The translations under genes were made by a program, and so were the position numbers. A stretch of DNA of 64,000 bases from a virus. Every line of letters starts with the position of its first letter. Within the stretch, counting starts at the first letter, position 1. Of this stretch, positions 26,817 through 60,563 are shown in pieces. The notes under the pieces were generated by a model that was not told the DNA's origin, made no database searches, and was given only the letters and a program-made list of their open reading frames with translations. Location of the stretch: positions 52,981-116,980 of IMG/VR virus record IMGVR_UViG_3300018875_000003. One strand, given 5' to 3'.

Positions 26817-27176
26817 ATGGAATTAATGAGTGGTTATCATTATCGTCCACCTGGCGAGTTCCAGGCACAAATCAACCGAACAAAAGCAAAAAACGGCGGC
26901 TTTCCAGGATGCTGGACAACGCAAGAAGGACTGGTTCTTCTTCCACAGAATATGCGTGATGGACATCTTTTAAACTCCATTGCCATGACAGAGCGACGCT
27001 ATATCGATAAGATGGGTATTCCTAATATCCGATCGATTGCCACGAAAGTTATCAATGGCACGTATAACAACAGTTATCAAGATCACCACATCCGAGAAGT
27101 CGTTCGCTCACTACGAAAAAGCCGAACCTATATTAATATGCTGAAAGAAGCCAGGGATCGGGGGATATTGGAATGA
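26817..27176 (+). CDS. Unknown basic protein
   Basis: The 119-residue protein starts MELMSGYHYRPPGEFQAQI and is rich in Arg, Asn and Tyr, with a basic C-terminal helix (REVVRSLRKSRTYINMLKEARDRG). GAGGTGA precedes the ATG, and the stop overlaps the next start (ATGA). A nucleic-acid-binding role is possible. Confidence 0.6.
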   Translation: MELMSGYHYRPPGEFQAQINRTKAKNGGFPGCWTTQEGLVLLPQNMRDGHLLNSIAMTERRYIDKMGIPNIRSIATKVINGTYNNSYQDHHIREVVRSLRKSRTYINMLKEARDRGILE

Positions 27177-27511
27177 AGCAGAAGTTTAACTTTGATCATA
27201 TTCATCGGATGGCCGCCGATATTCCACCGATCGGACAGACGGACGTAGAATATGCAAATCAGACGATGAAGGTTTTTAACGTCATTTTAAACCATGACGA
27301 AGCAAACGATGAGATGATCGACAACGTGGACATTGAAGGCATTCGCCGCGCTTTCGACATCGTTAACTACTCGACGACATGCGAAGATGATATCGAGGAG
27401 GGAACTTCTGATAGTCTCCGTGAAAGTCTATACCAACATGTTTACGTCCGCGGATACTTAGAGGAGCTTCTGTCTATGGCTCCCGTCCAGCCTGTCGTCA
27501 AGTTTTTCTGA
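27173..27511 (+). CDS. Unknown acidic helical protein
   Basis: The 112-residue protein starts MKQKFNFDHIHRMAADI. It is acidic and helical and is coupled to the preceding gene by ATGA. No family is recognised. Confidence 0.6.
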   Translation: MKQKFNFDHIHRMAADIPPIGQTDVEYANQTMKVFNVILNHDEANDEMIDNVDIEGIRRAFDIVNYSTTCEDDIEEGTSDSLRESLYQHVYVRGYLEELLSMAPVQPVVKFF

Positions 27512-27524
27512 AGGAGGTTTTACC

Positions 27525-28064
27525 ATGCACGAAGTCGGTTATTTGTCCGGTTATGAGGAGAAGGAGTACTGGCTGAATCAAATAGACGCCTTGGCGATCA
27601 TGAAACTATGCCGTCTTTATAACGTGGAAATCGAGGAAAACGAGTATGCTCTTTGCTCTCGCGCAGATGATGGCCATGTCATTACGTTTTTCCGGAAGAC
27701 GATGGCTAAAATCCTTGACCCTTACGCATACGTTCATCCATATGAGGACGATACACATCCCAACAGCATTCTGGATATTACATTTCATTTCAGGGATGAT
27801 CTTACGGAAGAGGAGAAGAAGATCGCTGAAGAAATGAAGAAGGGTATTCACCATGCCTTCGATGATCTATCCTACGAATATTGGGATGAATGGGAAGGCG
27901 ATCGTTTATCGATACGCGCTGATTTTTACGTAGGATACGGCGTTGCTGCTATTAAATTTATGGAAGATTTCAACAAGTTAAAGAAATACTTAAAGGAGGT
28001 GCCTTCCGATGTCTACGATAATGATCGAATTACATCCGGAGAAGCTGCCGCTTCTGATCATTGA
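27525..28064 (+). CDS. Unknown acidic protein upstream of the E2-like gene
   Basis: The 179-residue protein starts MHEVGYLSGYEEKEYWLNQ. It is acidic, with a long charged helix (TEEEKKIAEEMKKGIHHAFDDL) and a final region that overlaps the E2-like gene by 56 nt. AAGGAGG precedes its ATG, and AAGGAGG within its 3' end serves the next gene. The overlap makes it part of the same expression unit as the ubiquitin-like cassette. Confidence 0.65.
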   Translation: MHEVGYLSGYEEKEYWLNQIDALAIMKLCRLYNVEIEENEYALCSRADDGHVITFFRKTMAKILDPYAYVHPYEDDTHPNSILDITFHFRDDLTEEEKKIAEEMKKGIHHAFDDLSYEYWDEWEGDRLSIRADFYVGYGVAAIKFMEDFNKLKKYLKEVPSDVYDNDRITSGEAAASDH

Positions 28065-28686
28065 GGAGGACGGCAATAAAACCAGCAAATACGTGTACGC
28101 AGATCAAATCATTCACATGCTTACGTCTTCGGTGGATGAGAATATCGCGGCTCTCAATGATGAGGTGACGCTTTCGTCTCCGGCGCTGCCGCCTGGGACA
28201 GTAAAGTATTCGAAGTCTGCGCGAGGGAAAGATTACTTCTTCATGACTGTCGATGAAGTAACGCATGACATTCAGTATAACGAGTTTTCGTTTGAAGGCG
28301 TATCATACCCCAAAATGGTGTTTGCTTTTGCTGTTGCCGGCAAGCAGCTTGTGGGAGCTTCCTGTGCAACGTATAAGGACACCTTTCTCCGAGATAAAAC
28401 GGAGTTATTCCGCTTTCCTTATTCCAATGTCCACTCTGATGGCAAGCTCTGCTATTTCACGAATGAGCCGGTTCACGATCTCGTTCAGCTGCAGACGTTT
28501 CCTTATCAGTGGAGAGACGTAAAGAATAATGATCACATTTACTTTGCCGGACAGACCAATCAGCTCAAAGACACGCTGTTCAATGTCTACAAGCGGTTTG
28601 AAGGGCAGCCTTTCGATTACAACATCTTAACCCCGATGCAGAAGTCATTTGATACATGGGCGCAGGAATTTATTAGAGCCAACTAG
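28009..28686 (+). CDS. E2-like (PRTRC-B-like) protein
   Basis: The 225-residue protein resembles the E2-fold B protein of PRTRC cassettes. The key stretch is RFPYSNVHSDGKLCYFTNE, close to the HPNV-x-x-(D)G-x-(I/L)-C active-site signature of ubiquitin E2 enzymes, with Cys148 as the probable thioester residue. An LPP motif and an FAFAV strand precede it. The next two genes encode a ubiquitin-like candidate and an E1-like ThiF protein, the expected partners. AAGGAGG precedes the ATG. Family assignment is by motif and context. Confidence 0.7.
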   Translation: MSTIMIELHPEKLPLLIIEEDGNKTSKYVYADQIIHMLTSSVDENIAALNDEVTLSSPALPPGTVKYSKSARGKDYFFMTVDEVTHDIQYNEFSFEGVSYPKMVFAFAVAGKQLVGASCATYKDTFLRDKTELFRFPYSNVHSDGKLCYFTNEPVHDLVQLQTFPYQWRDVKNNDHIYFAGQTNQLKDTLFNVYKRFEGQPFDYNILTPMQKSFDTWAQEFIRAN

Positions 28687-28697
28687 GAGGAGATCAC

Positions 28698-29132
28698 ATG
28701 GAATTTTCACAAGAGCAAGAAAACAAAGACCTGGAGCAGCAGAAGCAAATCGATTATTTGAAGCAGGCGGTTGAGCCGGATCCCGAGGATGAAGAAGGCG
28801 GCGATGATGCTGCCGGCAATACTGCCGAGGAAGAAGATGTGGAGCTCGACTTGTTCGGGCAGCCGATTCAATCTACTCGGAAGTCTAAGCCGAAGCCAAA
28901 GGTCAACGCGGAGAAGCCAGCAAGTAAAGATGAGAAGTATGGCACCGATTGGATATGCCTGGTGTACGACCAGCGGATTCCTGTTCCGGAAGATGATATG
29001 ACTCTGGATAAGATTCGTCACTTCTTGGAAATGGACTATCCTCAGTTTTCCAAGGATCGCACCGAAATGATGGTGGACAAGGCTCAGAAGTATATCATTC
29101 CGAACGTGGCCAAAGCACCGAAGAAGGGGTGA
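28698..29132 (+). CDS. Ubiquitin-like (PRTRC-C-like) candidate with acidic extension
   Basis: The 144-residue protein has a disordered acidic and Lys-rich N-terminal part (1-80) and a small C-terminal domain (about 82-135) with a strand-turn-strand start (WICLVYDQRIPVPEDD), then LDKIRHFLEMDYPQF, which fits the short PRTRC-C beta-grasp pattern of a FxYxGxxLxDP-type strand followed by a helix and YPxL. It ends Lys-Lys-Gly, so a C-terminal glycine is exposed without processing. It sits between E2-like and E1-like genes. The ubiquitin-like call leans on this context. Confidence 0.6.
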   Translation: MEFSQEQENKDLEQQKQIDYLKQAVEPDPEDEEGGDDAAGNTAEEEDVELDLFGQPIQSTRKSKPKPKVNAEKPASKDEKYGTDWICLVYDQRIPVPEDDMTLDKIRHFLEMDYPQFSKDRTEMMVDKAQKYIIPNVAKAPKKG

Positions 29133-29136
29133 TCTT

Positions 29137-29937
29137 ATGCTCAGCATTGCGCTTGCGGACAAAAACACCAGCTTTAATATCGTGCAGATCGGTGTCGGCG
29201 GCAATGGGGGATACCTGACTCAGCGGCTCTCCAAGATGCTGTATTCATTCAAGCAAGGGGACGGCCTATTCCGGTTCAAATACACGTTGGTAGATGGCGA
29301 TCGCTTCGAGCGCAAGAATCTGCTTCGACAGCCTTGCATCGAGGATGACATGGGTATGGTGAAATCCCGTGTCCTGGCCGAGCGATACGGCATCACCTAC
29401 AACATCCCGATGTATTTCAGGGATACGTATATTGAGTCGGTCGATCATATCAAAGAAGCCTTCGGCAGCAGTTCTTCTTCCGATGAGCTGGATATCCTGA
29501 TCGGCTGCGTGGATAACCATGCGTCCAGACGAATCATGCACGAATACTTCCATCAGCACACCGGCAATATTCTTTACATCGATAGCGGCATATCAGCCTA
29601 CGATGAGAGTGATCCGATGTCTGGCTATTCCGGACAGGTCGTGTGCGGTTTGAAACTCAAAGGGAAGCTCATTTTGGAATCGGTAGGCGATCTGTTCGAG
29701 GATGTGCTGACCGAGACCGAATCGAAGCTGCCGACCGAATCCTGCGGCGATGTGGTCTTCTATGAGCCGCAGCGGATGATTACGAACGAGATGGCTGCAC
29801 TGACCATGGCAGGCCATTTAAACAGCGTAATGGGCTCCTATTCGTTGTTCGGACACGTCACGTATTTCAATGCGCTTACGATGCTGTCCAGAACGGAGTA
29901 CATCACACAAGAAGATGTCCTTTTGGCAACAAATTGA
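29137..29937 (+). CDS. E1-like ThiF-family adenylyltransferase
   Basis: The 266-residue protein has the ThiF/E1 nucleotide-binding start VQIGVGGNGG (16-25), then LVDGDRFERKNLLRQP, the D-x-x-x-x-x-N-L-x-R-Q motif of E1 enzymes, an ILIGCVDNHASR motif, and a late ESCGDVVFYEPQ with Cys203 as the likely thioester residue, as in PRTRC ThiF. It should adenylate the C-terminal glycine of the neighbouring protein and pass it to the E2. It ends the unit at the terminator 29941-29975. Confidence 0.8.
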   Translation: MLSIALADKNTSFNIVQIGVGGNGGYLTQRLSKMLYSFKQGDGLFRFKYTLVDGDRFERKNLLRQPCIEDDMGMVKSRVLAERYGITYNIPMYFRDTYIESVDHIKEAFGSSSSSDELDILIGCVDNHASRRIMHEYFHQHTGNILYIDSGISAYDESDPMSGYSGQVVCGLKLKGKLILESVGDLFEDVLTETESKLPTESCGDVVFYEPQRMITNEMAALTMAGHLNSVMGSYSLFGHVTYFNALTMLSRTEYITQEDVLLATN

Positions 29938-53714: not shown

Positions 53715-54167
53715 GTGGAGCTTATTAGTGCTTATATGTATAATCAAATCCCTTTTCAAACCATCGGTATTGCGCCTATAACGATCAACAATCTGATCTC
53801 TATGGGTTGGGTTGAAGACGAACGAAAGTCGGCAGCATATGCCATTATACACCGCCGCCTGAAAATTCAGGAGCAGTATTATAAGATGACCCTGCGCTTC
53901 AAGCGGATGCCGGACAACACCCTCGAACTGGATACTCCAGCGCCATTTATGATCGTACTCAGCGATCTGAAGGAGATTGAGCCACGTCCGCGTTTTGTTG
54001 ACACCGCCGTTTATCACAGCAAGAACGTCAAAACGGTGTCTGGCTATTTTGAGCAAGGCATCCCAACCGAATTGATCGAATCGCTGCACCTTGAACTGAA
54101 ATCGTGCCTGTCATATAAAAAAGAAGAGCCGTGGGTTATCGGCGTTGACTGGGGGAATAAGAAATGA
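53715..54167 (+). CDS. Unknown protein before the DUF6094-like gene
   Basis: The 150-residue protein starts at GTG (MELISAYMYNQIPFQTIG) with GGAGG 8 nt upstream. The middle has basic helices (IHRRLKIQEQYYKMTLRFKRM) and the end VIGVDWGNKK. It overlaps the next gene by 4 nt (ATGA). It probably works with the methyltransferase-like protein and the large helicase that follow. Confidence 0.65.
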   Translation: MELISAYMYNQIPFQTIGIAPITINNLISMGWVEDERKSAAYAIIHRRLKIQEQYYKMTLRFKRMPDNTLELDTPAPFMIVLSDLKEIEPRPRFVDTAVYHSKNVKTVSGYFEQGIPTELIESLHLELKSCLSYKKEEPWVIGVDWGNKK

Positions 54168-55426
54168 GTTTTGCACCAACACAAATGAACGCGGCACTTT
54201 CAAAGCGAACCGCACGGATCCTACGCACCTATCTTGATTTTCCATATAACAAACCTATTACTGCTCTCGATTTTAAAGCATTCGATGGACAACCGCTCAA
54301 CGAGCTGACTTTATGCGCCAGTGAGCGGTTTTTGTATGGCGCCGAGCCCGCACAGTTTATGGCCAAGCAGGCTAGTGAGTTTTTCGAACGTGTTGCAATT
54401 GCGACCTATAAGAGCGAATCCAAGATCAGTAACGATGTGTTCTCTCTGGCTCTCGTCAATCCGGTAGTTAGCCCTTACTTTATCAATGACATCTTTTCTT
54501 CTTACGATCCATTTCAGATTCCTGACTTTGAGGAAGAAGAGCGCCAGCGTCAGAAAAGCCTGGAGTCTACAAAGGATCATCTCGATCTCAACCAACTGGA
54601 GATGACTGCTGAAGAAATCGAACAGCGCAAAGCCGACATGGAAGAGCGTATTCAGAAAGCCATCGAAGAACGTAACATTGCGTATCGCCGCGCGCTGCGT
54701 GAGCAAGAGAAACGCACAGCTGCGTATCGTGATGATAAGCTGATGCTAGTGAATGCTACCCGCTATTTGAAGCCGGGCGGCATCCTGGTCATGATTACGC
54801 CGAAGGAGTTTATCGACGGACAGATCGCATTCAAACTGGCTAACAGTTATGAGGATATTCAAATCCTGCGACTGGAAGACGAAGAATATGAAGATCAGCG
54901 CAAGTGTGTGATTCTGGCCAAGAGACGGGCGAGGAACGTTCGTCAAGATACACTGCCTTATGAAATCATGCAGACGAAATACAAGTCGTATAAAGATATT
55001 CCAGTCATCTCATTTCAAGAGACACCAGCATACAAAGTGCCGGAGTCGCACAAGGATCAGGTCGTCAACTTCCGTATTGGACCGGTTACGCCTGATGAGG
55101 TCATGCACATGTTTAAGAAATCGGCTGTCGTTGAAAATTTTGCGATTCAGCACGGCATCACACTCGACAATCAAATACCAAAGCCGCCGACGCAGCTGCA
55201 TAAGGGTCACGTTTCCCTGACGCTGGCGAGCGGGCTGCTGAATGGATATATCGGAACAGGTCACGATCGACACCTGGTAAAAGGTTCTGTCGTGAAGAAG
55301 TCTACGGAAGTCACAGAGGAAGAAGACACAGAAGCTGGCACCGAAGTTAAAACAGTGGAGCGTGAGTATTTCCACATTGGAATTAAATATCTCGATCGTA
55401 ACGGGAATTTTCATAAATTGCTATAA
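54164..55426 (+). CDS. DUF6094-like methyltransferase fold, catalytically degenerate
   Basis: The 420-residue protein has the outline of DUF6094 proteins. ITALDFKAFDG (32-42) stands where the SAM-binding LDPxxGxG motif belongs, and FSLALVNPVV (93-102) where NPPY belongs. A charged coiled insert (120-190) follows, then YLKPGGILVMITPKEF (201-216) and RLEDEEYEDQRKCVIL, both as in the family. Loss of the glycines and of NPPY argues against methylation. A DNA-binding or scaffold role with the helicase is inferred. Confidence 0.62.
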   Translation: MSFAPTQMNAALSKRTARILRTYLDFPYNKPITALDFKAFDGQPLNELTLCASERFLYGAEPAQFMAKQASEFFERVAIATYKSESKISNDVFSLALVNPVVSPYFINDIFSSYDPFQIPDFEEEERQRQKSLESTKDHLDLNQLEMTAEEIEQRKADMEERIQKAIEERNIAYRRALREQEKRTAAYRDDKLMLVNATRYLKPGGILVMITPKEFIDGQIAFKLANSYEDIQILRLEDEEYEDQRKCVILAKRRARNVRQDTLPYEIMQTKYKSYKDIPVISFQETPAYKVPESHKDQVVNFRIGPVTPDEVMHMFKKSAVVENFAIQHGITLDNQIPKPPTQLHKGHVSLTLASGLLNGYIGTGHDRHLVKGSVVKKSTEVTEEEDTEAGTEVKTVEREYFHIGIKYLDRNGNFHKLL

Positions 55427-55438
55427 GGAGGAAATAGC

Positions 55439-58400
55439 GTGGCTATACGAGTATCTGATGAGCTTTTTAGGCTCCATTTTCATGCGCGCGGTCCTGGGGC
55501 GCTGACTCAGACCTATGTTGACTTGCTTGTTATGGAAGAAATCCGGGCGAACTCATTCAATCTATATCTGGCGAATACAATGAATATCGATTCGAAGCAA
55601 AAGATATTTGCTTATGACATGGCTGAAGTCAAAACCGGTGTGATTCAACCTGCAGGTGATGAACAAGTCCAAAGATCGGAGTCCGTTAACATCTTCATTG
55701 AGGAGAAGGATTCCTTTGATAAATACGAGCAGCGCATTGATGATATGACGAACATCTTGTTTGTCTCGAAGAGAGCCAAGAATGATGTAAAAAAGAAAGA
55801 GATGCGCCGCATCGAAAACATTGCTCGCATCGAAAATGGCATGCGTTCGCTGCCGCCAGAACCTGAATTAATCTTGGCCTGGAATGGTGACACGCATTCG
55901 GAAATCTACCGCGTTCTGAACGACCGGTATAATACACCGATGCTGCCGGAATGGAAAGACGATATCGTTCAGACATGTATCGATCTCGGCTATTACAGAC
56001 CGCTTGTGGTAAAAAGCTACGGCCGTGATTATGATCTGGAGGCTGGACTGCTGCGCATCACAGAAGAAGATCTCGAAGAGATTATTTCCGAAGGCATTCG
56101 CTCCTATTCGATGCCGTTTGCGATTCTCGATGACGGCCCAACGGAAGAAGAATCCGTGCTAAAAGACTGCACAACACTGGATGTGTATCTGGAGAACTTC
56201 GCCGGCGAACTTGGCCAGCGTGTACAGGAGAACTCACAGCTCCGCTTTGATCCTATGACGCAGGAGCATCACCGTTCACTCTGGCATGCGAATATGCACG
56301 CCAATACCAAAGGCGTAACCGGCCTGTTCCCGCCGCAAGCAGACGTTGTAATGGGCTGTGCGAATACGTTGGCCGAGGACAAATATGTCTTCCTGATCGG
56401 GGAGATGGGTAGCGGGAAGACACCAATGGGTCTGACGATTCCATATGTGACCCATGCCGTTCGTTCCGGTACCGATAAACCGAAGCCGTTCCGGACGCTG
56501 GTTTTTGTTCCGGCGATCATGGTAGACAAATGGCAGCGTGAGATCGAAGAACGCGTTCCTGATGCAAAGGTATACCGCATCAACACCTGGAAGGATGTTC
56601 ATGCTCTTCGTAACAAACCGTATCGTCCGACCGAGATCGAGTATTACGTAATGAGTTCCGATGCTGCGAAGCAGACGTATCCGCTTGAGCCAGTTATGGA
56701 TTTCCGTCATGGCTGCGACGACAACAATGACTATGATGAGGTCATCGCCAAGAAGCGCGCCGGAAATCAAGTCCGCATTCGCCCAACAGTATCGACAACT
56801 TTCTTCAACGGCAATCCGGTCGATACGGTAATCCCTGGTCCGGAAGCGATGTATTGCCCGCAGTGCGGATCGCCAATCAAGAAGACCAAGACGAAGTATT
56901 CCGACGAGCATTACTTCCAGCTGCGCCGCGGCAAGGACAAGTGGTCGTGGAATATGAACCGTGAGAATTATCGCTGCCGCAGCATGGTCAGTGTGGAGAA
57001 TCTGCCGAAGAACCAGCGTCAGCCAGGAGCTACCGAGAAACAAGAATGCGGATACGTGTTCTGGAGCGCCAAGAAGCTGCCTCAGCGTTCGCTGGAGCGT
57101 AAGGTGTCTCCGGCATGGTATCTGAATAAACACCTTCGTCGTGGGTTCTTCGAGTACCTGATTGCCGATGAAGTACATGAGTACAAGTCCGGTGACTCCG
57201 ATCGTGCGAATGCGTTCGGACAACTGATCAATCACACGAATAAACAAATCCTGCTGACCGGTACGCTGCTGGGCGGTATGGCGCGCGATATCTTCTATCT
57301 GATCGCACGTCTGGACTCCAAGAAGCTCAAGATCGAAGGCATCAGCTATGACGATGAAAGCCTATTTGTGGAGCGCTACGGCGTTTATGAGCGTTCTCAA
57401 ACCGAGTTCTCCGATGACCGTAAAGGCAAGAAGCGGAAGAAGCAGCTTCCAGGCGTTTCACCGCAGGTATTCCCGCGTTTCCTGATGAGCAACTGCGCAT
57501 TCATCGAGCTGGGTGATCTGGGCTACGCGCTGCCGCCGTATCGAGAGATTCCGATGTTCGTCGATATGGAAGAGGAGCATCGTCAGAAATATGATGAGCT
57601 GGAAGGCAACATCCAGCGAGCCATGGGGCAAGGCGGAATGAAACATCTGTCTACCTACATCACCAAGCTGTATCAGTATGCCGACATGCCATTCCGTCAG
57701 GATCCGGTAACGTATCTGGATGAGCGGGATGTCGAAAAAGTGTTGTGCCAGCCGTACAGTTTCCCGGAAGAGTATACGCCGAACAAGTACTACAACTTGC
57801 AGGGGCTGCTTGAGGAGCAGGTGGAGCAGCGTGGCCGCAAGGTTCTGATCTATGCGCGATTCACTGGCGGCGACAACGGGGTGGATACCTGGTTGTATGA
57901 GCGCCTTAAACAAGACGGCTATAACGTAGGCATCCTGCGTTCGTCCGGCACGTATGACGGCATGAAGATGCCGAAGCAAGAGGACCGTGAATCTTGGCTG
58001 CGCAAGAAGATGGAGCAGCATGATTGGGATGTCCTCGTGACAAACTCCCGTCTCGTAGCTGTCGGTCTCGACTTGTTGATGTTCCCGCACATTCACTTCT
58101 ACCAAATGGATTACAGTGCCTACAACTACATGCAGGCTTCCCGCCGATCCTGGCGGATTAAGCAAACGCAGGAAGTTGAGGTTAGTACGTCCGTGTATCG
58201 CAATACAATCCAAGCAGACGTTCTGGAAAGCATTGCGAAGAAGATTGATGCAGCAATGGCGCTCCAAGGTAAATTCTCTGAAGAAGGTCTGCGAGCAATG
58301 GCCGATACTGGCGATGGCATCAACGCAATAGCCAAGAAGCTGATGAATGAAGGTCGTCTGGACAATATCAACTCTATCGAAGATCGCTGGAAGCGGATCA

Positions 58401-58681
58401 ACGCATCCTACGAGCAGCTGCAGAACAGTCAGTACGAAGGATACGACTCTTACGAGATGAACCCACTGGGTATCGAGAAAGTCCGCGAGATTCAGAAGGG
58501 GCTCGTCTCCAAGATGCGAATCGATGTGGCTGCCGGCAGAATCACGCAAGAGACGCTGGAAGACTACATGGATCATATCGAGAGTGTCTTCCGCGTGGTC
58601 GAAGATGTGCGTGAATATAACAAAGGCCTGCGCAAAGCTGACCGGATCGTTGAGGGTCAGGGCGAGCTGGCGTTGTTCTAA
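55439..58681 (+). CDS. Large SNF2-like helicase with zinc insertion
   Basis: The 1080-residue protein starts at GTG after AAGGAGG. The N-terminal 310 residues are of unknown fold. The helicase core has GEMGSGKT (about 321-328), VFVPAIMVDKWQREIE, DEVH (about 577), LLTGTLLGG, then VLIYARFTGG and QASRRSWRIKQ. Between motifs Ia and II lies an insertion with C-x2-C and later Cys residues (MYCPQCGSPIKK...YRCRSM...QECGYVFW), a probable zinc ribbon. It follows the DUF6094-like gene by 12 bp, an association that suggests one DNA-processing complex. Confidence 0.82.
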   Translation: MAIRVSDELFRLHFHARGPGALTQTYVDLLVMEEIRANSFNLYLANTMNIDSKQKIFAYDMAEVKTGVIQPAGDEQVQRSESVNIFIEEKDSFDKYEQRIDDMTNILFVSKRAKNDVKKKEMRRIENIARIENGMRSLPPEPELILAWNGDTHSEIYRVLNDRYNTPMLPEWKDDIVQTCIDLGYYRPLVVKSYGRDYDLEAGLLRITEEDLEEIISEGIRSYSMPFAILDDGPTEEESVLKDCTTLDVYLENFAGELGQRVQENSQLRFDPMTQEHHRSLWHANMHANTKGVTGLFPPQADVVMGCANTLAEDKYVFLIGEMGSGKTPMGLTIPYVTHAVRSGTDKPKPFRTLVFVPAIMVDKWQREIEERVPDAKVYRINTWKDVHALRNKPYRPTEIEYYVMSSDAAKQTYPLEPVMDFRHGCDDNNDYDEVIAKKRAGNQVRIRPTVSTTFFNGNPVDTVIPGPEAMYCPQCGSPIKKTKTKYSDEHYFQLRRGKDKWSWNMNRENYRCRSMVSVENLPKNQRQPGATEKQECGYVFWSAKKLPQRSLERKVSPAWYLNKHLRRGFFEYLIADEVHEYKSGDSDRANAFGQLINHTNKQILLTGTLLGGMARDIFYLIARLDSKKLKIEGISYDDESLFVERYGVYERSQTEFSDDRKGKKRKKQLPGVSPQVFPRFLMSNCAFIELGDLGYALPPYREIPMFVDMEEEHRQKYDELEGNIQRAMGQGGMKHLSTYITKLYQYADMPFRQDPVTYLDERDVEKVLCQPYSFPEEYTPNKYYNLQGLLEEQVEQRGRKVLIYARFTGGDNGVDTWLYERLKQDGYNVGILRSSGTYDGMKMPKQEDRESWLRKKMEQHDWDVLVTNSRLVAVGLDLLMFPHIHFYQMDYSAYNYMQASRRSWRIKQTQEVEVSTSVYRNTIQADVLESIAKKIDAAMALQGKFSEEGLRAMADTGDGINAIAKKLMNEGRLDNINSIEDRWKRINASYEQLQNSQYEGYDSYEMNPLGIEKVREIQKGLVSKMRIDVAAGRITQETLEDYMDHIESVFRVVEDVREYNKGLRKADRIVEGQGELALF

Positions 58682-59682: not shown

Positions 59683-59833
59683 TTGGATGTACGATCTGGG
59701 TGTAAACGAAAATGGCAATGTTGTTGGAATCATCGGCAACCAGAAAATCGAAATCACTGAGAAAGATGTTCGCCGTATTTCTCATTTGTTTGAAATGGAA
59801 AGATTGAAAAAGGGAGCGACACACAATGACTGA
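59657..59833 (+). CDS. Small unknown protein
   Basis: The 58-residue protein starts MDNPNEYTNWMYDLGVNENG. A short beta region is followed by a basic helix (KDVRRISHLFEMERLKKG). GAGGAGG precedes the ATG. It overlaps the nucleotidyltransferase gene by 8 nt. Confidence 0.55.
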   Translation: MDNPNEYTNWMYDLGVNENGNVVGIIGNQKIEITEKDVRRISHLFEMERLKKGATHND

Positions 59834-60563
59834 ACAACAGCCTTTCTGGGAAAAGAATCTAATCCTAAAAGTCGTCACCGGCAGCCAGGCCTATGGCACG
59901 AATAACGAGGATAGCGATCTGGATACAAGAGGTATCTGTATCCCGCCAATCGATCATCTTGTTGGGCTTCATACCTTCGAGCAGCATGATTACAAGGATG
60001 AAGACCCAAACCGGGATGAGGTCGTATATGGTTTGGCTAAGTTCGTAAAGCTGGCCCTGGATAACAATCCAAACATTATGGAAATTCTGTACTCCCATGA
60101 CTCCGATGTGCTTTTCTGCAATCAGTACGGCGCGCTTCTTCGCAGTATTCGTCATCGGTTTTTGAGTCAACGCATCGCCAAAACATATGGCGGGTATGCG
60201 CGGTCGAGACTTCAGAAGCTTCAAAATCCTGATCGCCAGGCGCCGACCGGCAAGCGCAAGGAGCTATACGACAAGTTCGGCTTCGATACCAAGGATGCCT
60301 CCCATCTGATTCGACTGGTTAACGGCGCAACCGTGGCGCTGCAGACCGGCGAGATTCAAGTCCGCAGTGGTATCGCTTCCTATCTGAAAGATATCCGCAA
60401 CGGCGTATATACACTGGATGAGGTCATCGATCGTTATCATTATGAGGACCGTCAGATGCGGCTCGCACTGGAAAACACGTCCCTTCCGAAAAAGCCGGAT
60501 TTTAAAGCTGTCAACGAGTGGCTGACTGGCATTCATTTGAAATTCATAGTTGATGAAGGGTGA
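59826..60563 (+). CDS. RlaP/YcgL-type nucleotidyltransferase
   Basis: The 245-residue protein has the polymerase-beta-type start VVTGSQAYGTNNEDSDLDTRGICIPP, with the GS and D-x-D residues that bind metal and nucleotide, followed by DEVVYGLAKFVKLALDNNPNIMEILY typical of the RlaP family (PF10127). These enzymes are predicted to transfer nucleotides to RNA or protein and are sometimes linked to RNA ligases. No ligase is seen here. GGGAG precedes the ATG. Confidence 0.8.
   Translation: MTEQQPFWEKNLILKVVTGSQAYGTNNEDSDLDTRGICIPPIDHLVGLHTFEQHDYKDEDPNRDEVVYGLAKFVKLALDNNPNIMEILYSHDSDVLFCNQYGALLRSIRHRFLSQRIAKTYGGYARSRLQKLQNPDRQAPTGKRKELYDKFGFDTKDASHLIRLVNGATVALQTGEIQVRSGIASYLKDIRNGVYTLDEVIDRYHYEDRQMRLALENTSLPKKPDFKAVNEWLTGIHLKFIVDEG

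What the first reader, a model, noticed from the sequence alone, without database searches (positions are those of the whole stretch)
28009..29937. E2 / ubiquitin-like / E1 conjugation cassette
Three adjacent genes encode an E2-like protein with an SNVHSDGKLC active-site motif (Cys148), a 144-aa protein ending in Lys-Lys-Gly with a small C-terminal domain, and a ThiF/E1-like enzyme with GVGGNGG, the DxFxxxNLxRQ motif and a candidate thioester Cys203. The order and features resemble PRTRC cassettes. No JAB protease is seen nearby, which fits a modifier that already ends in Gly. The acidic N-terminal extension on the modifier is unusual. A phage-like replicon carrying a full conjugation set could modify host or replication proteins.
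Basis: partly seen in the sequence, partly recalled or inferred. Interest (0 to 1): 0.85.

Follow-up and report, generated by a model that had tools for sequence, protein, structure and literature searches.

The report
Protease-free ubiquitin-like tagging system in phage-plasmid
A large virus-like plasmid of Paenibacillus-type bacteria carries what looks like a complete ubiquitin-style protein-tagging operon whose tag is encoded ready-made and which has lost the protease that its relatives use to trim the tag, so tagging may be permanent; the enzyme kit is of a known bacterial kind, but this protease-free variant on a virus appears not to have been described.

Summary
Three adjacent, tightly spaced genes encode an E2 (Prok-E2_D, Cys148), a beta-grasp modifier ending exactly in Lys-Lys-Gly, and a ThiF/E1 (Cys203). 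Two further conserved genes (27173-28064) belong to the cassette. Comparison with about 80 relatives gives the key evidence. In most relatives the modifier is fused to a JAB protease, and the junction is the same "KKG|". In four relatives with an adjacent, separate JAB, the modifier keeps 2-5 residues after the Gly. In JAB-less cassettes (18 of 18 loci scored, about 4 lineages) it stops exactly at the Gly. No JAB of this family occurs anywhere in the 117-kb record or in five whole related records of 200-215 kb. Hence the tag is most likely encoded mature, with no dedicated deconjugase. The closest whole relative is a 215-kb phage-plasmid.

It is PRTRC-like (the Iyer 2006 type-6d operon) but fails all PRTRC cut-offs tested and lacks PRTRC_A and ParB. 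AlphaFold supports a ββαββ modifier core. The E2 model is confident but Foldseek finds no E2 in the PDB, so the E2 call rests on Pfam and an HPN-like N140-x7-C148 motif. Conjugation, targets and role are untested. New variant of a known kind.

The parts
27173..27511 (+). up2: 112-aa conserved accessory protein, ends ...VVKFF-COOH
   Evidence: Same gene order in relatives; small protein ending F[F/I/L] upstream of the E2 in 49 of 72 loci against 22 of 1,412 other ORFs of that size
27525..28064 (+). up1: 179-aa conserved accessory protein, overlaps the E2 start by 56 bases
   Evidence: 27-member alignment, K27 invariant; profile finds it directly upstream of the E2 in over 30 loci; no Pfam/NCBIfam family
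28009..28686 (+). E2-like conjugating enzyme (Prok-E2_D), Cys148
   Evidence: Prok-E2_D E=6.8e-4 for this protein, below its cut-off, but all 62 homologues hit the family, best 2.3e-37; AF2 mean pLDDT 91
28417..28452 (+). E2 active-site segment P137-YSN140-VHSDGKL-C148, matching the eukaryotic HPN...C spacing (N77/C85 in UBE2D)
   Evidence: A6 conservation; hhalign of A6 with three eukaryotic E2s pairs N140 with N77 and C148 with C85, E=0.0012, probability 19.6%
28698..29132 (+). Ubiquitin-like modifier with acidic, disordered N-terminal extension; ends KKG-COOH
   Evidence: PRTRC_C/Prok_Ub only weakly and through relatives
28938..29108 (+). beta-grasp core of the modifier (residues 81-137): strand-strand-helix-strand-strand
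   Evidence: AF2 model, pLDDT about 90 over this part; E86-89 E92-95 H103-113 E122-127 E132-137
29121..29132 (+). KKG-stop: mature C-terminus, equal to the Ubl|JAB junction of relatives; the same bases serve as the E1 Shine-Dalgarno
29137..29937 (+). ThiF/E1-like activating enzyme
   Evidence: PF00899 1.7e-9 over cut-off; PRTRC_ThiF 2.7e-18, 66 bits, below cut-off
29191..29211 (+). E1 nucleotide-binding loop GVGGNGG (residues 19-25)
29743..29745 (+). E1 candidate thioester cysteine Cys203
   Evidence: invariant in alignment A1

Best explanation
A five-gene operon (up2-up1-E2-Ubl-E1) on a large phage-plasmid of Bacillales encodes a ubiquitin-like protein-conjugation pathway. Proposed order of events: the E1 (GVGGNGG loop) adenylates Gly144 of the modifier with ATP; the modifier passes to Cys203 of the E1, then to Cys148 of the E2, and from there to an amino group on target proteins. 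Relatives make the modifier as a precursor (fused to a JAB protease, with a short tail, or as tandem repeats) and need the JAB to expose the Gly. Here the Ubl gene ends exactly at that Gly, so no maturation step is needed, and the element carries no dedicated protease to take the tag off. Modification would then be constitutively enabled and, unless a host enzyme acts, irreversible. up1 and up2 are conserved partners, perhaps target or E2 adaptors. Shown by sequence: the genes, families, invariant catalytic residues, KG junction rule, JAB absence, purifying selection and phage-plasmid setting. Inferred: activity, thioester order, target, irreversibility and role. The genes sit inside the replication/recombination module, so replication or host-takeover proteins are the likeliest targets (weak inference).
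For: E1: ThiF over cut-off, PRTRC_ThiF 2.7e-18; invariant motifs and C203. E2: 62/62 homologues hit Prok-E2_D; C148 invariant, P137/N140 at least 90%; N140-x7-C148 aligns with N77-x7-C85 of eukaryotic E2s. Modifier: strand-strand-helix-strand-strand core at pLDDT about 90; G144 invariant in 42 sequences; relatives in the same position hit PRTRC_C/Prok_Ub, one far above cut-off. Processing rule: KG is the fusion junction with JAB; separate-JAB loci keep 2-7 residues after the last KG; JAB-less loci keep none, 18/18. JAB absent from the own record and from whole related records NZ_CP118109, NZ_CP021670, NZ_CP114067, NZ_AP025341 and NZ_CP014843. JAB state needs 5 changes on the E1 tree, at least 3 forced by well-supported branches; window clade 99/98. 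dN/dS 0.07-0.17 for all five genes. Phage-plasmid: capsid, terminase, tail, ParM, DnaN, PolIII in NZ_CP118109; terminase in the own record.
Against: No biochemical evidence. Foldseek found no significant PDB match for either model. The hhalign E2 match is weak (probability 19.6%). The own modifier hits Prok_Ub only at E=0.095. The KKG codons double as the Shine-Dalgarno of the E1 gene, although KKG-stop is kept in B. licheniformis-type plasmids where the modifier is not followed by the E1 gene. Two members of the window clade (pAD3, pN497) carry a JAB about 20-25 kb away in a second Ubl system, so a trans-acting JAB is possible there. A PAPS-reductase-family gene directly follows the E1 in pN497, which would also suit sulfur transfer. 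The own record is linear and possibly incomplete.
Confidence: 0.7

Rival explanations
1. A sulfur-transfer system of the ThiS-ThiF / MoaD-MoeB kind: the E1 activates the modifier to a C-terminal thiocarboxylate that delivers sulfur to a tRNA or metabolite, and no protein is tagged.
For: Single-domain ThiF-type E1 and a modifier ending in one Gly; the modifier in plasmid pAD3 is annotated MoaD/ThiS family; PAPS-reductase-family genes lie near the E1 in pN497 and pTHECO01.
Against: An E2-family protein with an invariant Cys in all 62 homologues aligned has no role in sulfur transfer; most relatives have a JAB with an intact HSHx7SxxD motif; none of the annotated neighbours read here was a rhodanese or a thiamine/molybdopterin gene; the PAPS-reductase gene is not seen in the annotated neighbourhoods of the nearest relatives.
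Confidence: 0.15
2. The chemistry is conjugation, but the role is defence of the lysogen: the phage-plasmid tags virion or replication proteins of competing phages, as Bil systems tag tail proteins.
For: Known bacterial Ubl systems (Bil, type II CBASS) are anti-phage (PMC11354881, PMC10097602); the E1 has weak matches to PADLOC E1-E2 models, best 2.9e-5.
Against: The neighbourhood is a replication/recombination module (SNF2 helicase, OB-fold protein, RecA, UDG, primase, UvrD), not a defence cluster; phage KLEB27-3 carries a relative; no effector gene and no PADLOC match for the other four genes.
Confidence: 0.3
3. A decaying remnant: a PRTRC-like cassette that has lost its JAB and is no longer functional.
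For: JAB loss and low HMM scores.
Against: All catalytic residues kept; dN/dS 0.07-0.17; JAB-less cassettes conserved in 7 E1 rows across Paenibacillus and Bacillus elements; tight spacing and good Shine-Dalgarno sequences.
Confidence: 0.04
4. A host or second-system JAB acts in trans, so tagging is still reversible.
For: pAD3 and pN497 carry a JAB in a second cassette; some bacteria holding such cassettes have other Prok-JAB proteins.
Against: No JAB of this family in five whole 200-215 kb elements or in the own record; the generic host JABs do not match this family's JAB profile.
Confidence: 0.25

Closest known systems
Type 6d operon of Iyer, Burroughs and Aravind 2006 (PMC1779556): Ubl + JAB + E1 + E2 + helical protein
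   Same: Same E1, E2 and Ubl kinds, separate small Ubl with conserved C-terminal Gly, sporadic distribution including Bacillus
   Different: That survey states a JAB was fused to the E1 or in the adjacent gene in every case; here none. The absolutely conserved downstream His it describes is not invariant here. up1/up2 could not be equated with its helical protein
PRTRC cassette (TIGR03735-TIGR03738; A=JAB, B=E2, C=Ubl, ThiF)
   Same: E1 and E2 are recognisable by the PRTRC models; gene content overlaps
   Different: All scores below curated cut-offs; no PRTRC_A, no ParB; modifier carries an N-terminal extension
BilABCD (ISG15-like; anti-phage)
   Same: Separate Ubl, E2 and E1 proteins
   Different: BilA has two Ubl domains and is processed by the JAB BilC; BilB has a CEHH motif (PMC11354881). 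Here one Ubl domain, no JAB, no CEHH
Type II CBASS Cap2/Cap3
   Same: E1/E2 chemistry, JAB as deconjugase
   Different: E1-E2 fusion that conjugates the cGAS-like enzyme itself (PMC10097602); no separate Ubl there, no nucleotidyltransferase here
Bacillus phage KLEB27-3 gp194-gp196 and the second system of plasmids pAD3/pN497
   Same: Same E2 and E1 families; a Ubl gene and an F[I]-ended small protein nearby
   Different: These have JAB and a tandem poly-Ubl precursor; E1 only about 30% identical

Membership tests
PRTRC cassette | PRTRC_ThiF model TIGR03736 over cut-off (144.75 bits) | tested here: not met
   66.2 bits, E 2.7e-18
PRTRC cassette | PRTRC_B model TIGR03737 over cut-off (131.45 bits) | tested here: not met
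   16.2 bits
PRTRC cassette | PRTRC_C model TIGR03738 over cut-off | tested here: not met
   No match for the window protein; relatives 14-16 bits against 45.95; KLEB27-3 poly-Ubl 61 bits
PRTRC cassette | PRTRC_A JAB protein present | tested here: not met
   No JAB by PF14464 or family profile A8 in the record
PRTRC cassette | ParB-related gene | tested here: not met
   PF02195 no match at E<=0.01 in the 117-kb record; other ParB-related models not tried
Prok-E2_D (PF14460) E2 family | Sequence membership | tested here: met
   Own protein 19.8 bits, below the 25-bit cut-off, but 62/62 homologues match, best 2.3e-37: met through the family
Prok-E2_D (PF14460) E2 family | Catalytic Cys in E2 active-site context | tested here: met
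   C148 invariant, N140 at least 90%; aligned with C85/N77
E2 (UBC) fold | Structural match to a solved E2 | tested here: inconclusive
   AF2 pLDDT 91 with helix, beta-meander, helices, but no significant PDB match; four significant matches among viral models, none with an informative name
Ubiquitin-like beta-grasp modifier | strand-strand-helix-strand-strand core | tested here: met
   AF2 residues 81-137 at about 90 pLDDT; Foldseek best hits protein G/L, not significant
Ubiquitin-like beta-grasp modifier | C-terminal Gly exposed | tested here: met
   G144 invariant and terminal
ThiF/E1 superfamily | GxGGxG, DxD...NLxRQ, catalytic Cys | tested here: met
   PF00899 over cut-off, invariants
Iyer 2006 type 6d operon | JAB in the operon | tested here: not met
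   rule stated in PMC1779556
Bil system | JAB BilC and E2 CEHH motif | tested here: not met
   No JAB; only C148 and His156 (+8) of CEHH fit in the window E2 and neither E nor H is invariant
Bub system | Bub operon gene content | not tested
   Defining papers (Gong 2025, Ye 2026) not held
Functional conjugation pathway | ATP-dependent thioester and target conjugates | not testable with these tools
   Needs bench work

The most novel reading that the evidence does not exclude
A virus-encoded ubiquitin-like pathway that has dispensed with its protease several times independently, so that a ready-made tag is attached irreversibly to host or replication proteins. Targeting would be by up2, whose C-terminal F[F/I/L] tip (often acidic in relatives) resembles the SSB C-terminal peptide and would bring the machinery to the replisome.
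Probability: 0.2. Interest if true: 0.85.

Novelty: new variant of a known kind. Interest (0 to 1): 0.6.

Why it matters
Bacterial ubiquitin-like pathways studied so far (Bil, CBASS) are known as host defences and use a JAB to mature or remove the tag. A phage-plasmid that carries E1, E2 and a pre-matured modifier without a protease offers a minimal three-protein system, easy to rebuild in vitro. It would test whether phages use protein tagging for their own ends and whether deconjugation is dispensable. The relatives (Ubl-JAB fusions, tailed Ubls, phage poly-Ubl) form a natural series of precursor types that parallels eukaryotic polyubiquitin and ubiquitin fusions.

Tried and rejected
(1) Membership in PRTRC: rejected on curated cut-offs and on missing PRTRC_A and ParB. 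(2) PHROGs: no family for the E2, only chance-level hits for the modifier and E1. (3) PADLOC: only weak E1-E2 hits to the E1. (4) Single-sequence scans of viral contigs with the E1 and E2 found nothing; an alignment was needed. (5) Sequence search of the PDB with the E2 profile: nothing of note; with the Ubl/Ubl-JAB profile only AMSH-type JABs and chance hits at E 0.04-0.8. (6) KKG as an artefact of the E1 Shine-Dalgarno: considered because the bases overlap; rejected as the sole cause because KG is also the in-frame junction with JAB and is kept where the next gene is not the E1. (7) A simple rule that a JAB means a Ubl with extra residues: perhaps not universal. In PRTRC-like phage locus L081 a 69-aa ORF that may be the Ubl ends NKG-stop although a JAB gene is present, but that ORF has no family match. 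(8) L032 was first scored as JAB-less; it is an orphan E1 without E2 or Ubl and was dropped. (9) Functions of up1/up2: no Pfam, NCBIfam or PADLOC match; relatives gave nothing in NCBIfam. (10) The Gong 2025 Bub paper is not held; no paper linking phage-plasmids with ThiF was found.
Full report
Observation. The window is part of a 116,980-base IMG/VR virus record. ORFs at 28009-28686, 28698-29132 and 29137-29937 are as described, each with a Shine-Dalgarno-like sequence. The E1 matches ThiF (1.7e-9, over cut-off) and PRTRC_ThiF (2.7e-18, below cut-off). The E2 matches Prok-E2_D (6.8e-4) and PRTRC_B (0.005). The modifier matches Prok_Ub only at 0.095.

Setting. The nearest relative with a whole sequence is Paenibacillus urinalis plasmid NZ_CP118109 (214,846 bases, circular), with the same gene order. 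It encodes a major capsid protein, terminase, virion structural proteins, holin, ParM, DnaN, PolIII alpha and ribonucleotide reductase, so it is a phage-plasmid of jumbo size. The own record has a terminase too, outside the window. In the window the cassette sits in a replication/recombination module: SNF2 helicases, OB-fold protein, RecA, UDG, ThyX, UvrD and primase. The B. licheniformis-type plasmids (about 205 kb) carry the same set with the E1 moved to the front.

The cassette has five genes. Two genes upstream, here up2 (27173-27511) and up1 (27525-28064), keep their order in relatives. The two diverge fast (42% identity to P. urinalis, against 64-70% for E2, Ubl and E1), yet dN/dS is 0.15-0.17 between B. 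halotolerans and B. paralicheniformis plasmids, against 0.07-0.11 for E2, Ubl and E1. up2 has one striking constant: a small protein ending in F[F/I/L] lies upstream of the E2 in 49 of 72 loci, against 22 of 1,412 other ORFs of that size (71 of 1,461 in all; the subtraction treats each of the 49 loci as one such ORF). In many relatives the tip is acidic (EDDFI, DDDFI, EDVDFF); in the window it is VVKFF. Codons and stop codons vary, so the selection appears to be on the protein. This recalls the acidic-hydrophobic SSB C-terminus (own knowledge; untested).

Relatives. An E1 alignment retrieved 63 loci from genomes and 14 from viral contigs. Iterated profiles on all ORFs located E2, Ubl, JAB, up1 and up2. 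All 62 aligned E2s match Prok-E2_D, with C148 and P101 invariant and P137, N140 and L207 nearly so.

Precursor logic. In most cassettes the Ubl is fused to JAB, and the in-frame junction is KKG or a variant (PILQARKKG|AGM, PIVTGGKKG|SYL, AVPKAKKKG|LNQ; gut Clostridia likewise). The JABs keep the HSHx7SxxD metal-binding signature. Where JAB is a separate adjacent gene, the Ubl has 2-5 residues after the Gly (L013, L017, L038, L039). The tandem Ubl of Bacillus phage KLEB27-3 keeps a C-terminal tail (7 residues after the last KG). Where JAB is absent, the Ubl stops at the Gly in 18 of 18 loci (this count includes near-identical pairs, so the number of lineages matters more). On the E1 tree, JAB absence needs 5 changes, at least 3 forced by well-supported branches. 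The window clade (window, L007 = the P. urinalis type, L073, L003, L071, pAD3, pN497) has support 99/98. Caveat: fused Ubls have residues after the Gly by construction; the informative parts are the identical junction, the tailed separate Ubls and the absence of tails in several JAB-less lineages.

JAB really absent. PF14464 and a profile of 41 family JABs find nothing in the own record, in NZ_CP118109 or in NZ_CP021670; the family profile also finds nothing in NZ_CP114067, NZ_AP025341 or NZ_CP014843. The family profile finds its targets in control genomes. In pAD3 and pN497 a JAB does occur 20-25 kb away, inside a second Ubl system with its own E2, E1 and poly-Ubl. Those two elements thus hold both types side by side: system 1 Ubl ends GAKKG* or GAKNG*; system 2 is a 4-fold or 2-fold Ubl precursor with residues after the last TKG.

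Structure. AlphaFold2 (42-sequence alignment) gives residues 81-137 of the modifier as strand-strand-helix-strand-strand at about 90 pLDDT, with a low-confidence N-terminus apart from one helix. Foldseek's best, non-significant hits are the small beta-grasp proteins G and L. The E2 model is confident (pLDDT 91), but no solved E2 is retrieved. Four significant matches appear among predicted viral proteins, best 1.6e-12. The E2 fold is therefore supported by family and motif, not by a structural match.

Mechanism. Established family chemistry predicts adenylation of Gly144 by the E1, then thioesters on C203 and C148, then transfer to a target amine. With the Gly already exposed, the maturation cut that JABs perform (for example BilC on BilA, PMC11354881) is unnecessary; with no JAB, removal would need a host enzyme. 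Activity, target and irreversibility are inference. Role: a replication-linked or host-takeover function is slightly favoured by gene neighbourhood; defence of the lysogen is a live alternative.

Comparison. The kit belongs to the operon kind predicted by Iyer et al. 2006 as type 6d (PMC1779556), where a JAB was always fused to the E1 or in the adjacent gene. It is related to, but outside, the curated PRTRC families. It differs from Bil (two Ubl domains, JAB, CEHH E2; PMC11354881) and type II CBASS (E1-E2 fusion, no Ubl gene; PMC10097602). I found no paper describing a JAB-less member or one on a phage-plasmid, but the library lacks most subscription journals and the defining Bub papers. Verdict: real, intact by all sequence criteria, a new variant of a known kind.

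Noticed in passing
L006:772-1479 (Bacillus phage vB_BauM_KLEB27-3, OM634661): A phage-encoded polyubiquitin-like precursor: four near-identical 57-aa Ubl repeats joined at VKG|M with a short C-terminal tail; matches PRTRC_C (61 bits) and Prok_Ub (93.9 bits) over cut-off; protein repeats far more alike than their DNA (4.0 copies of 171 bp, 81% match), near a JAB, E2 and E1.
   Followed up: partly
L097:1259-1996 (pAD3) and L098:1792-2133 (pN497): Second Ubl systems with 4-fold and 2-fold Ubl precursors (KAGTKG junctions), JAB, E2 and E1 on the same plasmids that carry the JAB-less cassette.
   Followed up: partly
27173-27511 and relatives: The up2 family diverges quickly but keeps a C-terminal F[F/I/L], often after an acidic run, like the SSB C-terminal tip.
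   Followed up: partly
L010:5771-7630, L015:2964-5623, L021:4380-6989, L035:4389-7010: Group II introns interrupt the Ubl-JAB gene (L010, L015; in L010 within the JAB domain) or sit between E2 and Ubl genes (L021, L035).
   Followed up: partly
29121-29132: The codons for KKG-stop of the modifier are also the Shine-Dalgarno sequence of the E1 gene, coupling the two.
   Followed up: partly
L093:4746-5669 and L004:15009-15851: PAPS-reductase-family genes directly after, or a few kb from, the E1; possible link to sulfur chemistry or DNA/tRNA thiolation.
   Followed up: no
L065/L074, L067/L075, L068/L082, L078-L080, L083: A second JAB-less lineage in gut Erysipelotrichaceae and viral contigs: Ubl (ends HKKG, YKKG, HAKG or HSKG) - E1 - 270-306 aa protein - E2, in L065 followed by an SSB-like gene.
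   Followed up: partly
L032:7956-8822 (Lysinibacillus halotolerans): Orphan E1 of this family with no E2, Ubl or JAB within 8 kb.
   Followed up: no
L088:33050-34349 (NZ_CP118109 121049-122348): The P. urinalis phage-plasmid carries flagellin and carbon storage regulator (CsrA-like) genes side by side, which may change host motility.
   Followed up: no
54164-55426 and 55439-58681: DUF6094 methyltransferase next to a 1080-aa SNF2-type helicase; the same pair is annotated in the P. urinalis phage-plasmid.
   Followed up: no
59826-60563: RlaP-like RNA repair nucleotidyltransferase (PF10127, 1.9e-20).
   Followed up: no
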